Shown here: piece by piece, positions 1,069 to 9,689 of the stretch
Position numbering within the stretch: position 1 is the first letter of the stretch
Layout of the letters: every line of letters starts with the position of its first letter
Origin: Anaerolineae bacterium
GTDB taxonomy: Bacteria; Chloroflexota; Anaerolineae; Aggregatilineales; Phototrophicaceae
Assembly (NCBI GenBank): GCA_016789005.1
Contig: JAEURA010000001.1
Coordinates: 1 to 34,720, forward strand
Reading direction: 5' to 3'
Length of the DNA: 34,720 nucleotides
Notes under the pieces: generated by a model
What the model was told of the DNA's origin: nothing
Databases searched by the model: none
The model's input: the letters and a program-made list of their open reading frames with translations, nothing else
Made by a program: the position numbers and the translations under genes

Positions 1069-2124
1069 CTACACGGGTGGCGCGCCGGTCGCTGTGTTCG
1101 GGTAAGCTTTTCGGTAACGTTCCCGATGCGACTCGCGCTCCAGGAGCGCCATCTGAAATGGATGGTAAAACTTCGGATCGGTGAACGCCGCCAGCGAGTC
1201 CGGCGCAAATAACCGGGACATAACCTGTGTGGTCAGCATTTCCAGGGGGGCATCCGCCTGCATCTGGCGGGTGACAGTGGTCGGCAGAGGTATCTGCCAG
1301 CAGACCTGTGCCAGCCTTAAGCCCAACAGCAGCATCCGCCGGCTGCCGCGCCGTGACGCTTCCGCCAGCAGATTTTCCCAGTCCAGGGGCGGCACGCGCT
1401 GCACGTAAAAGGCGATATCCACGATCCACGACAGGCGAAACCAGCAGTGTTTGCTGCCGTGCAGGCACAGATAGAGCAGCAGATCAGGCGGCGATAAGGT
1501 CTGTATCTCACGTTCGAACGCCGGGAGGGTCTGAAGCCGCCGCCAGACTCCGGCGTCATCCATCAGTCCATCGTAGACCGGCGGCAGCAGCATCTCGTGC
1601 AGCTCGATGATCAGCCGGCTGTGATGATGCTGAAAGACCACCGAATGCCTCGCTGCGGCATCGGACTCCACCGCTTCATAATCCTGGGTCCCCAACCATT
1701 CGAGCGCCGCCGGCATGGTTTCCGGCGTCGTCAGCAGATCGAGATCGCCGCTGATGCGCAGAGCAGGATCATCATAGAGGAGGGATGACAGCAGCGGACC
1801 TTTGATCGGAATCAGTGGAAGGTGTCTGCGGTGCGCGCTTTCCAGCAGTCGGACCAGCTCAGCAACGACAAGGCGAGTGAAGGTGTCGTTCTGACGCTGA
1901 ACGCTGTCCAGGCGGGCAAGCGCGAGCGGGGGCAGCAGGTCCAGACCCGCGAGACGGCGGCGCAGGAGTCCGGCAGTCCCATGATCGACGGCGTAGGCTG
2001 CCAGGCGATAGCCATCAACGCGCGCTCGCCAGGCATCGACATCCAGCGAAACAGGTTCAGGACTCAGGCAGGCGATCAGGAAACGTATCGTCTCGGTATA
2101 GTCCTGCGGAAACAGGTCAAACAA
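1069..2124 (-). CDS. Nucleotidyltransferase-family protein of the lasso-peptide operon (NTP_transf_5 type)
   Basis: This 351-residue protein resembles the uncharacterised nucleotidyltransferase family (PF14907 type). It has IPIKGPLLSSLLYDDP at about 106-120, followed by RISGDLDLL at about 123-131, the expected metal-binding region of a nucleotidyltransferase fold, and the later family signature LCLHGSKHCWFRLSWIVDIAF. The start is a TTG inside the last codons of the kinase gene (8-base overlap, TTGTTTGA), implying translational coupling. Enzymes of this family accompany HPr-kinase-like proteins in some lasso-peptide clusters, including pseudomycoidin, where I recall the nucleotidyltransferase acting on the phosphorylated peptide. 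Here I infer that it further modifies the phosphorylated C-terminus of the peptide made from 3029-3205. The substrate cannot be read from the sequence. Confidence 0.8.
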   Translation of the reverse strand: MFDLFPQDYTETIRFLIACLSPEPVSLDVDAWRARVDGYRLAAYAVDHGTAGLLRRRLAGLDLLPPLALARLDSVQRQNDTFTRLVVAELVRLLESAHRRHLPLIPIKGPLLSSLLYDDPALRISGDLDLLTTPETMPAALEWLGTQDYEAVESDAAARHSVVFQHHHSRLIIELHEMLLPPVYDGLMDDAGVWRRLQTLPAFEREIQTLSPPDLLLYLCLHGSKHCWFRLSWIVDIAFYVQRVPPLDWENLLAEASRRGSRRMLLLGLRLAQVCWQIPLPTTVTRQMQADAPLEMLTTQVMSRLFAPDSLAAFTDPKFYHPFQMALLERESHRERYRKAYPNTATGAPPV

Positions 2125-3019
2125 GGCTGCGTTCCACCAGTGTCACCAGCGCATCGAGCGTGTCCAGCGACCAATGCCGAATCAGACGGTAGACGGACAC
2201 GGTTCTGACCAGCGCCTCACACTGCGCGAAGTGATCGCGCGCCGTATCCGCCATGCGCACGAGCGGGACGGTGTAGGTGTGATTGACCAACGCCATGAAC
2301 GCCTCCTGCACGCCCAGCGCCTCAATGCGGTGCTGTTCCCCCTTATCCAGCAGAAAGATCGCCCGAACAGGGATGGGCTGCTGAGATGGCGTTTCGATCT
2401 GGCGCAGACGTTTCTCGATTTTTGGGAAAGCCTGCGCCAGGTGTTCAGGGTCATCACCCAGCGCCGCCGCCGCTTCGGGCCATAGTTTGAGCCGACTCAA
2501 TCCCGGCAGCATCACCGGCACATCGCCATCGCGCACCAGAACAGGCGTGATGTCGTCGGCAAGCACCCGATGCCCCCGCCGGCGAAGCGCGCCAACCAGC
2601 GTCGATTTCCCTTGTCCAGACCATCCGACAAAAACCACCGCTGATCGATCAGCCGAAGTTGGAGCTGTCTCAACCGCGCTGCCGTGCAGCACCAGATAAC
2701 CGCGCTGATGCAGCGCAACCGCAATACAGGGACCCAACAGGAGGTGCTCGATCATGCGCGGATCAGCCCCAGGCAGAGGATCAATCGCGATCCGCCGTCC
2801 TTCGCTGATGCGAAAACTCCCCGCCGCCGTGTAGTACAGCAGGACGCCATCGTTGTCCACATTCATGAAATCTTCCTCGATGAATGGGATGGGCGTCCCC
2901 GGTTCAGGAGCCACGCAGCTGATCAACAAATCAGCCGCTGCGTCTGATGCAGCGGCTGACGGTTCGCTCAAGGCAAATTCTGACTGGATCAGCAGCCCAA
3001 AAGCACGATAGAACGGCAT
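2117..3019 (-). CDS. HPr-kinase-like lasso-peptide tailoring kinase
   Basis: This 300-residue protein belongs to the HPr serine kinase/phosphorylase-like (HprK C-terminal, P-loop) family. Visible motifs are LVLHGSAVE at about 109-117, the Walker A GWSGQGKST at 132-140, and the acidic LADDITPV at 153-160, where HprK has its metal and catalytic acidic residues. It lacks the N-terminal domain of true HprK, and no HPr (ptsH) gene is nearby. The ATG lies 9 bases after the stop of the lasso precursor, and its end overlaps the nucleotidyltransferase gene. Homologues in paeninodin-type clusters (PadeK, ThcoK) phosphorylate the C-terminal Ser of the lasso precursor, and the neighbouring precursor does end in Ser. 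The assignment as peptide kinase is inferred from family and context. Confidence 0.85.
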   Translation of the reverse strand: MPFYRAFGLLIQSEFALSEPSAAASDAAADLLISCVAPEPGTPIPFIEEDFMNVDNDGVLLYYTAAGSFRISEGRRIAIDPLPGADPRMIEHLLLGPCIAVALHQRGYLVLHGSAVETAPTSADRSAVVFVGWSGQGKSTLVGALRRRGHRVLADDITPVLVRDGDVPVMLPGLSRLKLWPEAAAALGDDPEHLAQAFPKIEKRLRQIETPSQQPIPVRAIFLLDKGEQHRIEALGVQEAFMALVNHTYTVPLVRMADTARDHFAQCEALVRTVSVYRLIRHWSLDTLDALVTLVERSLV

Positions 3020-3028
3020 GAACGGAGT

Positions 3029-3205
3029 CTACGACCCCGGCAGTCCGGTGGTACGAATACGGGTCGAAATGAACGGGTTCTCACGGGGTCCGGAAATCCC
3101 GGACATGGTGACCTTTTCCAGGCTTCCGATTCTGTGCAAGTCCGGGGTGGTATACGGTTTCTTCCTGCGAGGTTCGTTCGGACGGGAGGGATTCACAGTA
3201 CTCAT
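3029..3205 (-). CDS. Lasso peptide precursor (58 aa)
   Basis: A strong ribosome binding site (AAGGAG, 5 bases of spacing) lies across the stop codon of the cyclase gene, and the ATG follows 9 bases after that stop. The product has a leader with the canonical pattern Y18-x2-P21-x-L23-x3-G27-x5-T33, recognised by RRE-type leader-binding proteins, with Thr in the conserved penultimate leader position (T33-M34). The predicted 24-residue core starts SGISGPRE and ends TTGLPGS. Its only acidic residue is Glu at core position 8 (E42), exactly where the isopeptide ring closes, giving a Ser1-Glu8 macrolactam with a 16-residue tail rich in Arg, Thr and Ser. The C-terminal residue is Ser, the expected phosphorylation site of the adjacent kinase. 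Ser rather than Gly at position 1 is less usual. A core starting at G36 (7-membered ring) is a weaker alternative. Confidence 0.87.
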   Translation of the reverse strand: MSTVNPSRPNEPRRKKPYTTPDLHRIGSLEKVTMSGISGPRENPFISTRIRTTGLPGS

Positions 3206-3214
3206 ATCTGCTCC

Positions 3215-5131
3215 TTACCCTGAAAATGCCTGCCATTTGTTGAGCCAGAGGGCAAAAAGCGAAACGGACCACAGGGATAGCCCAATGCCAGCGTCGCCAG
3301 TGCTCTCGAACTGCCGGAATAAGTGCTGGATATAGTTGGTATCGAGATAAGCCGAAAGATTATTGTTAGAAACACTATATAGCGAGTTTTTAATGAAGTC
3401 AAGTTCATAGTTCAATAATATATGATTATGATTCTTCGTTGGAATCCACTTGCTGCTGCGCTGCGCAATCTCGAGCGGCAGCAGATCGCTCAGAGCGCGC
3501 CGAACAATCCGACGATTCCAGCCATCGCGTACGCGCTGCTCTCTTGGCAGCCCATAGCTGTACGTCACCAGGCGGGTGTCAAAGTAGGGATATCTCGGCT
3601 CAATGCCAAAGCGGCTGGCGAGCAGATCAAGATATTCCAGCCCATGTGAACTGCCGTGCATCAGGGCAGCATAATGGGATTCGCGAACACGGCGGTGCTG
3701 ACGCCTACCCTGCCATCGGGCAGACAGCCGTTCGGCGGCATCGACCCGCCGCGCAAAGTCTCGATTCAGCAGGCGCGGCACGGCATCCTGTGGACGGGGA
3801 TCAGAACCGCGAAGCAGACGCGCTCTGAGCAGAGAGAGCGCCCCGGACACATAGGGCTGAATCATGTGGCGGCGAACCAGCGACCAGGCGCTAACTCGTC
3901 CCAGGTAAAAGCGGCGGGCGTACGCCCGCGCTTCCCGCAGTCCGGTCAGCCAGCGAAACTGCCCGGCGAGTTCGGTAAGGTAGACCGGATCGTAGGTGAC
4001 GACGGTATCTCCATCTGTGCCATCAAGCAGCACGCGGATACCATCGCGTTGTGCCGCCTGAAGCGCCTTCCACAGCACCGAGTATCCCATGCTGACGTAG
4101 AGATCATCCATGATCGCGATGACATCTGGCACAAACAGGGAATGCCGCGTCGCCTCCCCATCGATCACGGTCGAGGCGATCTGTTTCTGCGTGACGACGG
4201 CCTGAACGTAAGCCGCTTCACTGAACCCGGAGACGGTGGGGCTGTACAGCACGGAATAGGCGCGCAGCCGCTCGCCTGGGACAACACCACGCTCTGCGAG
4301 CACATAATCGGCGGCACAGGCGAGGGATGATGAATCCAGTCCGCCGCTCAGAGCAATGCCTACCGGCGAACGACTGCCGAGCCGGGCAGCGACTGCCTCC
4401 AGGAAAAGATGTCGAAATTCGGCTTCGTACGCCTCGTCGGACATCGGCGCGAGGCGATAATCGGGGTTCAACTGCCAGAAAGGACTGAGCTGAGCGTTTC
4501 CCTCACGCACAATCAGCGTGTGTCCCGGCTTGAGGCGCTGCACGCCTTCAAAAAAGGTGCTTTCCTGGTCGCTGAAGTCTTCGACGAAGAAGGCGAAAAT
4601 GCGCGCCTCGTTGAAACGCGCACGAGAGAGCGCAGACGGGAGTGTCAACAGCGCCTTGATCTCGCTGGCAAAAGCGAACAGACCTGGGTGGAGAACATAA
4701 TAGAACGGGCGCGCCCCAAACGGATCACGAGCGCAGAAGCAAAGCGAGAGCGCTGCATCCCAGATGATGAAGGCAAATTCGCCCAGGATGCGGCTGGCGC
4801 AGTCAAAACCCCAACGAGCATAGGCTGCCAGCAGTATGGCTCCATCGGATGCCGTCTGAGCGGAAATGCCGAGTTCTGCGCACAGCGCATCGCGATTGTG
4901 CAGATACCCGTCAAGGACTGCGACTCTCGCTGGCGTCCCTTCTTGATGGGCAAAATCGTTCATGTCCAGGGGACTGCGGTAGCCCAGGGCGATCTGTGCT
5001 AACCCCCAACTCTCGTTGGTATCAGCAAGGCGGTCGCGCATCGAACGCAGCATTCCGTCAACCTGCGCCTGAGCGCTGCCACGCACAGAATCGCCATGCT
5101 GACGATGCCATACCCCGGCTATCGTTCCCAT
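3215..5131 (-). CDS. Lasso peptide cyclase (asparagine synthetase homologue)
   Basis: This 638-residue asparagine-synthetase-like protein is the first gene of the minus-strand operon. An N-terminal class II glutaminase-like fold is visible (GEFAFIIWDAALSLCFCARDPFGARPFYY at about 117-145), but the nucleophilic Cys2 of a real glutaminase is absent: the protein starts MGTIAGVWHR. The AMP-forming synthetase domain carries the PP-loop LSGGLDSSS at 261-269 and LLDGTDGD at 368-375. In lasso clusters this enzyme adenylates the ring Asp/Glu side chain and closes the ring with the peptide amine, so loss of the ammonia-producing Cys fits. AAGGAA about 8 bases upstream supports the ATG at 5131. The part encoding roughly residues 570-605 is strikingly AT-rich and Asn-rich compared with the rest. 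The same motifs would suit a standalone asparagine synthase; the adjacent precursor decides the call. Confidence 0.88.
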   Translation of the reverse strand: MGTIAGVWHRQHGDSVRGSAQAQVDGMLRSMRDRLADTNESWGLAQIALGYRSPLDMNDFAHQEGTPARVAVLDGYLHNRDALCAELGISAQTASDGAILLAAYARWGFDCASRILGEFAFIIWDAALSLCFCARDPFGARPFYYVLHPGLFAFASEIKALLTLPSALSRARFNEARIFAFFVEDFSDQESTFFEGVQRLKPGHTLIVREGNAQLSPFWQLNPDYRLAPMSDEAYEAEFRHLFLEAVAARLGSRSPVGIALSGGLDSSSLACAADYVLAERGVVPGERLRAYSVLYSPTVSGFSEAAYVQAVVTQKQIASTVIDGEATRHSLFVPDVIAIMDDLYVSMGYSVLWKALQAAQRDGIRVLLDGTDGDTVVTYDPVYLTELAGQFRWLTGLREARAYARRFYLGRVSAWSLVRRHMIQPYVSGALSLLRARLLRGSDPRPQDAVPRLLNRDFARRVDAAERLSARWQGRRQHRRVRESHYAALMHGSSHGLEYLDLLASRFGIEPRYPYFDTRLVTYSYGLPREQRVRDGWNRRIVRRALSDLLPLEIAQRSSKWIPTKNHNHILLNYELDFIKNSLYSVSNNNLSAYLDTNYIQHLFRQFESTGDAGIGLSLWSVSLFALWLNKWQAFSG

Positions 5132-9106: not shown

Positions 9107-9664
9107 ATGCGTGGATGGATGCTCGAACTGCTGATCAACGCCATCGCCGTCGCCGTGATCACCTCCGGGCTGCTGCCCGGCGTGCGCATCATCGGCAATC
9201 AGCTGCCGACCGTGATCGTCGTCGCACTGGCGTTCGCCGTCGCCAACGTGCTGATCAAACCGATCCTCAAACTGCTGACCTGCCCGCTGATCTTCCTCAC
9301 CCTCGGACTGATCATCCTGGTCATCGACGGCGCGATGCTGGCGCTGGCGGCGTCGTTTTCGGACGTGACCGGCACGCTGACCGGCGGGCGGCTGGTGATC
9401 GACAGTTTTGGCTGGGCGGTCGTCGGCGCACTGATCATGGGGATCATCGAAGGCGTGCTCGGCTGGGTGCTGGACCGTCAGGAGCGCCGGGGGAAGCCGC
9501 CGGTCAGGACGACGCGCGTCATCCTGGAAGACCGCCGCTCCGGCGCAGATGACGACTTCAAGGGTCTGATGCGCGGCGAACGCACTCCCAAACGCAGAAC
9601 ACCCGCCGCTGAAGACGACTGGGATTTCTACGACCCCGACACAGGCAAACCGAAGCGGCGGTGA
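9107..9664 (+). CDS. Phage holin family (holin_4_2/YvlD-like) membrane protein
   Basis: The N-terminal 115 or so residues form four hydrophobic helices in the order typical of the small YvlD/holin_4_2 family (PF04020): LLINAIAVAVITSGLLPGV, the VIVVALAFAVANVLIKPILK segment, PLIFLTLGLIILVIDGAML, and WAVVGALIMGIIEGVLGWVL. The conserved NxLIKPILKLLTCP and LGLxxLxIDxxML patterns are clear. A basic, acidic and disordered tail of about 60 residues follows (ending DTGKPKRR), longer than in simple members. I chose ATG 9107, with GAGG 8 bases upstream; ATG 9101 is possible. Despite the name, chromosomal members are not known to be holins, and there is no phage context here. The role is unknown. Confidence 0.82.
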   Translation: MRGWMLELLINAIAVAVITSGLLPGVRIIGNQLPTVIVVALAFAVANVLIKPILKLLTCPLIFLTLGLIILVIDGAMLALAASFSDVTGTLTGGRLVIDSFGWAVVGALIMGIIEGVLGWVLDRQERRGKPPVRTTRVILEDRRSGADDDFKGLMRGERTPKRRTPAAEDDWDFYDPDTGKPKRR

Positions 9665-9689
9665 AGCCCCTTTGAATGTGGAGACGAAC

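What the first reader, a model, noticed from the sequence alone, without database searches (positions are those of the whole stretch)
1069..5131. Compact lasso-peptide operon with a small precursor gene, built for C-terminal phosphorylation
Seen directly: a 58-residue frame at 3029-3205 with its own strong ribosome binding site, wedged between an Asn-synthetase homologue and an HPr-kinase-like gene (gaps 9 and 9 bases). The product matches the lasso leader pattern YxxPxLxxxG...T and the penultimate-Thr rule, and its core (starting SGISGPRE, ending TTGLPGS) has its only acidic residue at ring position 8. Established knowledge: HPr-kinase-like enzymes in paeninodin-type clusters phosphorylate the C-terminal Ser, and this core ends in Ser. 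Inference: the product is a phosphorylated lasso peptide with a 24-residue core. By hand I get a neutral monoisotopic mass of about 2481.31 for the macrolactam and about 2561.27 with one phosphate. The order cyclase-precursor-kinase-nucleotidyltransferase, with the precursor second, is uncommon to my knowledge.
Basis: partly seen in the sequence, partly recalled or inferred. Interest (0 to 1): 0.92.

Follow-up and report, generated by a model that had tools for sequence, protein, structure and literature searches.

The report
Lasso-peptide operon missing its B genes
An uncultured Chloroflexota bacterium carries a small operon for a knotted (lasso), probably phosphorylated peptide, and the two leader-processing genes that such operons almost always carry are missing here and sit elsewhere in the genome, which suggests that separate lasso pathways share parts.

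Summary
Four close-packed minus-strand genes encode a lasso-type cyclase (3215-5131), a 58-residue precursor (3029-3205), an HPr-kinase-like kinase (2117-3019) and an NTP_transf_5 protein (1069-2124). The precursor has Y(-17)xxP(-14)xL(-12), T(-2) and one acidic core residue, E8. A congeneric genome keeps the whole operon, and the precursor is under purifying selection. The masses check. Removing B1-B2 from the usual operon gives C-A-K-NT, so "precursor second" is not unusual. Of 71 named relatives with enough flank, 63 have both; 3 lack both, one of them a congener. This genome and G025 each have two B1 and two B2, all elsewhere, beside other incomplete lasso loci. B1s that lack the Tyr-binding Asp were never found with YxxP leaders. 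Only one B1 here (contig C61) keeps that Asp, so it is the predicted trans partner of this YxxP precursor; the lone B2 on C33 is the likeliest peptidase. C-terminal Ser phosphorylation is plausible, not established: 15 of 48 dereplicated kinase-linked precursors end in Ser. Nothing was tested at the bench.

The parts
3215..5131 (-). lasso-type macrolactam cyclase (C), 638 aa; PPi-loop motif SGGLDSS; N-terminus MGTIAG, so no Cys2 glutaminase nucleophile
   Evidence: NF033535 lasso cyclase is the best NCBIfam match at 420 bits, under its cut-off of 525; PF00733; 87% identical in G025
3211..3216 (-). Shine-Dalgarno AAGGAG of the precursor gene
   Evidence: same hexamer in G025
3029..3205 (-). lasso precursor A, 58 aa; leader residues 1-34 with YTTPDL at -17 to -12 and T at -2; core residues 35-58
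3032..3103 (-). core SGISGPRENPFISTRIRTTGLPGS; predicted ring Ser1-Glu8; C-terminal Ser24
   Evidence: 10 synonymous and 2 conservative replacement changes in G025; masses
2117..3019 (-). HPr-kinase-like lasso tailoring kinase (K) with H112, Walker A GWSGQGKST at 132-140 (K138) and D155-D156
   Evidence: TIGR04352 E 1e-9; motif positions match the His-Lys-Asp-Asp motif of lasso kinases (PMC9266682, PMC10368454)
1069..2124 (-). NTP_transf_5 protein (NT), PsmN-like by family and context; TTG start overlapping K by 8 bases
   Evidence: PF14907 E 1e-49; 94% identical in G025

Best explanation
The operon encodes a lasso peptide precursor with its own cyclase and C-terminal tailoring enzymes, and depends on B1 and B2 supplied in trans. 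Proposed steps: (1) B1 from contig C61, a Tyr-type RRE, binds YTTPDL in the leader; (2) K, probably helped by that B1, phosphorylates the C-terminal Ser24, and NT may add a group (hexose in the one studied case) to the phosphate; (3) a B2 peptidase in trans, most likely the lone B2 on C33, cuts after T(-2)-M(-1); (4) the cyclase joins the Ser1 amine to Glu8, giving an 8-residue ring threaded by the tail. Shown: the genes, motifs, selection, absence of B1/B2 from the locus, and their presence at other loci in two genomes. Inferred: every enzymatic step, the pairing with C61 B1 and C33 B2, and the threaded topology.
For: No B1 or B2 in the 34.7 kb window or in the syntenic G025 locus. G000 has exactly two PqqD and two Transglut_core3 genes, all elsewhere; G025 (97% complete) has the same set. 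The leader motif is conserved while residues 2-12 drift, so something still reads it. At the site of LppB D70, which binds the leader Tyr, all 37 dereplicated YxxP-only loci have Asp; 6 of 9 WxxP-only loci have Glu or Gly (Fisher p 9e-6). C61 B1 has Asp; C19 B1 has Glu and sits with WxxP precursors. Tyr/Trp discrimination by RREs was shown experimentally in Bacillota (PMC13381572).
Against: Both genomes are fragmented MAGs (90% and 97% complete), so an unseen B1 or B2 cannot be fully excluded. RREs outside Bacillota can be promiscuous (FusB1, PMC13381572), so C19 B1 could also serve. Some WxxP systems keep the Asp (L092, L193, L194). In G058 a B1-B2-K locus exists where the search found only a Cys2 AsnB, so not every unlinked B set serves a lasso cyclase. 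No expression or product data.
Confidence: 0.68

Rival explanations
1. The operon is self-sufficient or decayed with respect to the leader: the cyclase acts on core peptide freed by a general cell protease, or the pathway no longer works.
For: Pseudomycoidin, a related phosphorylated lasso, can be made without leader and leader peptidase (Zyubko 2019, title as cited in PMC9266682 and PMC10885120). No B genes at the locus.
Against: The leader motif YxxPxL...T is conserved between species while the first 12 residues drift, and cyclase, precursor and kinase have dN/dS of about 0.13-0.16 against G025.
Confidence: 0.12
2. The B1/B2 pair of contig C19 processes this precursor, and in exchange the C16 cyclase serves the cyclase-less C19 precursors.
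For: C19 carries A1, A2, K, sulfotransferase, B1 and B2 but no cyclase; its cores also begin SG with E8 and end in Ser.
Against: C19 leaders are WxxP and its B1 has Glu at the Tyr-binding site. The orphan cyclase on C331 is sister, with full support, to the cyclase of a complete B1-B2-C-K-ST cluster in G033, so C331 is the better match for C19.
Confidence: 0.15
3. The missing B genes are an artefact of incomplete MAGs.
For: 90% complete, 352 contigs.
Against: The locus is internal in its contig and the flanks (GatC; VWA-like protein) are the same in G025; the four B genes found are orthologous in both genomes.
Confidence: 0.05

Closest known systems
Paeninodin / pseudomycoidin-type phosphorylated lasso peptides
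   Same: A, C, HprK-like K and NTP_transf_5 genes; C-terminal Ser core; kinase motif complete (PMC9266682)
   Different: B1 and B2 absent from the operon; leader is YxxP, whereas paeninodin-like leaders are nearly all WxxP (PMC13381572)
B1-B2-C-A-K-NT clusters of Cyanobacteria, Acidobacteria and relatives, e.g. L085 (Acidobacteria gp2) and L095 (Leptolyngbyaceae)
   Same: Same gene types in the same order after removal of B1-B2
   Different: Those carry B1-B2 directly upstream of C; cyclase identity is only 27-35%
Linear polyphosphorylated peptides (LPP)
   Same: K and NT with a YxxP leader (PMC13381572)
   Different: LPP clusters lack a cyclase and carry an SpI-like peptidase; this operon has a lasso-type cyclase and E8 in the core

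Membership tests
Lasso peptides | AsnB-like cyclase of the lasso type | tested here: met
   NF033535 best match, 420 bits but under the curated 525 cut-off; no Cys2; groups with cyclases of complete B1-B2-C clusters
Lasso peptides | Precursor with leader YxxPxL, Thr(-2), and Asp/Glu at core 7-9 | tested here: met
   Y-17, P-14, L-12, T-2, E8, conserved in G025
Lasso peptides | B1 (RRE) and B2 (leader peptidase) available to the pathway | tested here: inconclusive
   None in the operon or window; two of each elsewhere in the genome. Clustering is usual (63 of 71) but is not what defines the class; action in trans is untested
Lasso peptides | Threaded macrolactam product | not testable with these tools
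   needs MS and NMR
Paeninodin-type phosphorylated lasso peptides | HprK-like kinase with His-Lys-Asp-Asp motif | tested here: met
   H112, K138, D155, D156
Paeninodin-type phosphorylated lasso peptides | C-terminal Ser as kinase substrate | tested here: inconclusive
   Core ends in Ser in both species; phosphorylation not testable; Ser3 alternative (BsfK) absent because core residue 3 is Ile
Linear polyphosphorylated peptides (LPP) | No macrolactam cyclase | tested here: not met
   cyclase present

The most novel reading that the evidence does not exclude
This Chloroflexota genus runs several lasso pathways as a dispersed network. Tyr-leader precursors on different contigs (C16, C61, C127) share one Tyr-type RRE and a lone peptidase in trans, and are kept apart from a Trp-leader, sulfotransferase-linked pathway (C19 plus the orphan cyclase C331) by Tyr/Trp discrimination in the RRE.
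Probability: 0.5. Interest if true: 0.66.

Novelty: new variant of a known kind. Interest (0 to 1): 0.5.

Why it matters
Cluster-based miners expect B genes beside the cyclase and may under-score or skip such operons. A shared RRE and peptidase serving several precursors would be a natural test of how RREs choose leaders, and it gives specific pairings to test. I found no report of lasso core enzymes encoded away from their precursor in the papers searched, which is a limited library; reliance of clusters on enzymes encoded elsewhere is known for other RiPPs (unclustered lanthipeptide proteases, PMC8960859).

Tried and rejected
(1) A hidden or fused B1/B2 in the window: none with custom HMMs. 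(2) BsfK-type Ser3 phosphorylation: core residue 3 is Ile in both species. (3) C16 cyclase as the displaced cyclase of C19: the tree puts C331 there instead. (4) Kinase presence as proof of a C-terminal Ser: only 15 of 48 dereplicated precursors. (5) Class-level survey as proof of trans lasso biosynthesis: 11 of 28 B2 loci had no cyclase within about 9 kb, but in G188 a cyclase without Cys2 lies 14 kb away, and single-contig G058 shows only an ordinary Cys2 AsnB, so B1-B2-K sets may also serve non-cyclised RiPPs. (6) N33/G42 as leader predictor: C61 has Asp and C19 His, uninformative. (7) The Fisher count wrongly counted L079 (FxxP leader, Tyr at the site) as Y-Asp; recounted by script. (9) The pseudomycoidin paper itself is not held.

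Full report
Observation. The four minus-strand ORFs, their coordinates and the two 9-base gaps are as stated. The precursor start has AAGGAG five bases upstream. Numbering back from the core, Tyr is -17, Pro -14, Leu -12 and Thr -2; BsfA uses the same -17, -14 and -12 positions (PMC10368454). The core has a single acidic residue, Glu8. In a congeneric genome, G025, the whole operon is syntenic: cyclase 87%, precursor 86%, kinase 89% and NT 94% identical, with the same flanking GatC and large VWA-like gene. The precursor evolves as coding sequence (dN 0.08, dS 0.62); the leader motif and core are held while residues 2-12 drift.

Gene identities. The cyclase's best curated model is the lasso isopeptide cyclase NF033535 (420 bits, under the 525 cut-off), and it lacks the Cys2 of glutamine-hydrolysing AsnB. 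The kinase matches HprK-related models weakly but has the His-Lys-Asp-Asp motif of lasso kinases: H112, K138, D155, D156 (PMC9266682, PMC10368454). NT is PF14907; in pseudomycoidin the nucleotidyltransferase-like PsmN is linked to hexosylation of the phospho-Ser (PMC9266682).

Gene order is ordinary; the missing genes are not. A scan of named genomes gave 78 loci. With custom profiles, of 71 with at least 2.5 kb upstream of the cyclase, 68 have B1, 63 have both B1 and B2, and 58 have the order B1-B2-C-K; precursors often lie between C and K. Only L089, L106 and L144 lack both; L144 matches G024:C510 in length and content and so is from the window's own genus. The window operon is therefore the common operon minus B1-B2.

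Where the B genes are. G000 has two PqqD genes (C61, C19) and two Transglut_core3 genes (C33, C19) and no others detected. G025 has the orthologous four. C19 carries two precursors with WQTP leaders, a kinase, a sulfotransferase, B1 and B2, but no cyclase; its G025 counterpart has three precursors. C33 is a lone B2. C141 and C61, which look like one locus because G025 has the genes together on C203, carry a cyclase, kinase, precursor-like ORF and B1 but no B2; C127 carries a cyclase, kinase and precursor-like ORF but no B. C331 is a lone cyclase, sister to the cyclase of a complete B1-B2-C-K-ST cluster in G033, so it probably serves C19. G027 shows a similar split: C plus A on C365, B1-B2 alone on C266.

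Which B1 serves this precursor. In Bacillota, LppB D70 binds the leader Tyr, and RREs discriminate Tyr from Trp leaders (PMC13381572). At the aligned site, all 37 dereplicated loci with only YxxP leaders have Asp, and 6 of 9 WxxP-only loci have Glu or Gly (Fisher p 9e-6). One further non-Asp B1 (L079, Tyr) has an FxxP leader, and L125 and some class-level loci have Glu with no leader identified. WxxP clusters may also keep Asp (L092, L193, L194), so the rule runs one way: a non-Asp B1 was never seen with a Tyr leader. C61 B1 has Asp and C19 B1 has Glu. The C16 leader is YTTP, so C61 B1 is the predicted partner. The choice of B2 is less certain; C33 is preferred because C19 B2 is encoded beside the Trp-type B1.

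Phosphorylation. Ten precursors of this genus (C16 and its G025 ortholog, two on C19, three on G025:C197, and those of G024:C510, G033:C333 and G027:C419) end in Ser, but the C61 and C127 ORFs do not, and across phyla only 15 of 48 dereplicated kinase-linked precursors do. C-terminal phosphorylation is likely, not established.

Class-level survey. PF13471 occurs in 74 of 396 genomes of the class. Of 28 B2 loci taken with up to 9 kb flanks, 17 have a linked cyclase-like gene and 11 do not. Two of the 11 were checked and weaken the count: G188 has a cyclase 14 kb away, and G058, a single-contig genome, shows only a Cys2 AsnB. Unlinked B genes are therefore frequent here but do not all imply trans lasso biosynthesis.

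Verdict. A real lasso-type operon, a new variant in that its B genes are unlinked. Limits: MAGs, two closely related genomes carrying this exact operon, no bench data, and HMMs built from the loci themselves.

Noticed in passing
window:33113-33227; L005:7281-7470 and 9557-9667; L019:2703-2812; L021:6060-6160: A dispersed repeat of about 110 bases, mostly 79-90% identical between copies, lies between genes across this genome (14 matches, some partial, in 167 kb examined); in C19 it forms the predicted N-terminus of the B2 ORF, so that start is probably wrong.
   Followed up: partly
window:7782-8041: Tandem 66-base repeat (3.9 copies, 93% matches) coding an Ala/Thr/Gln-rich stretch in a 1259-aa VWA-like protein next to the operon.
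   Followed up: no
L005:6712-7321; L035:8765-9936: Two (G000) and three (G025) tandem precursor genes with WxxP leaders ending TESG, E8 and C-terminal Ser, beside a kinase and sulfotransferase: a separate lasso family without a linked cyclase.
   Followed up: partly
L086, L092, L127, L133, L151: Cluster loci with B1 but no B2 detected, four of them cyanobacterial; the genome of L092 also gave a second locus (L111) with both B1 and B2, so B2 may be shared there too.
   Followed up: no
L215 (G058, single-contig genome): Kinase-B2-B1 locus in a genome where the search found only a Cys2 AsnB-type gene: possibly a non-cyclised phosphopeptide RiPP.
   Followed up: partly
L023:3232-3396: Precursor-like ORF with core CTGGSPFND... 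and a second Cys, beside a cyclase and kinase without B genes; conserved in G025.
   Followed up: partly
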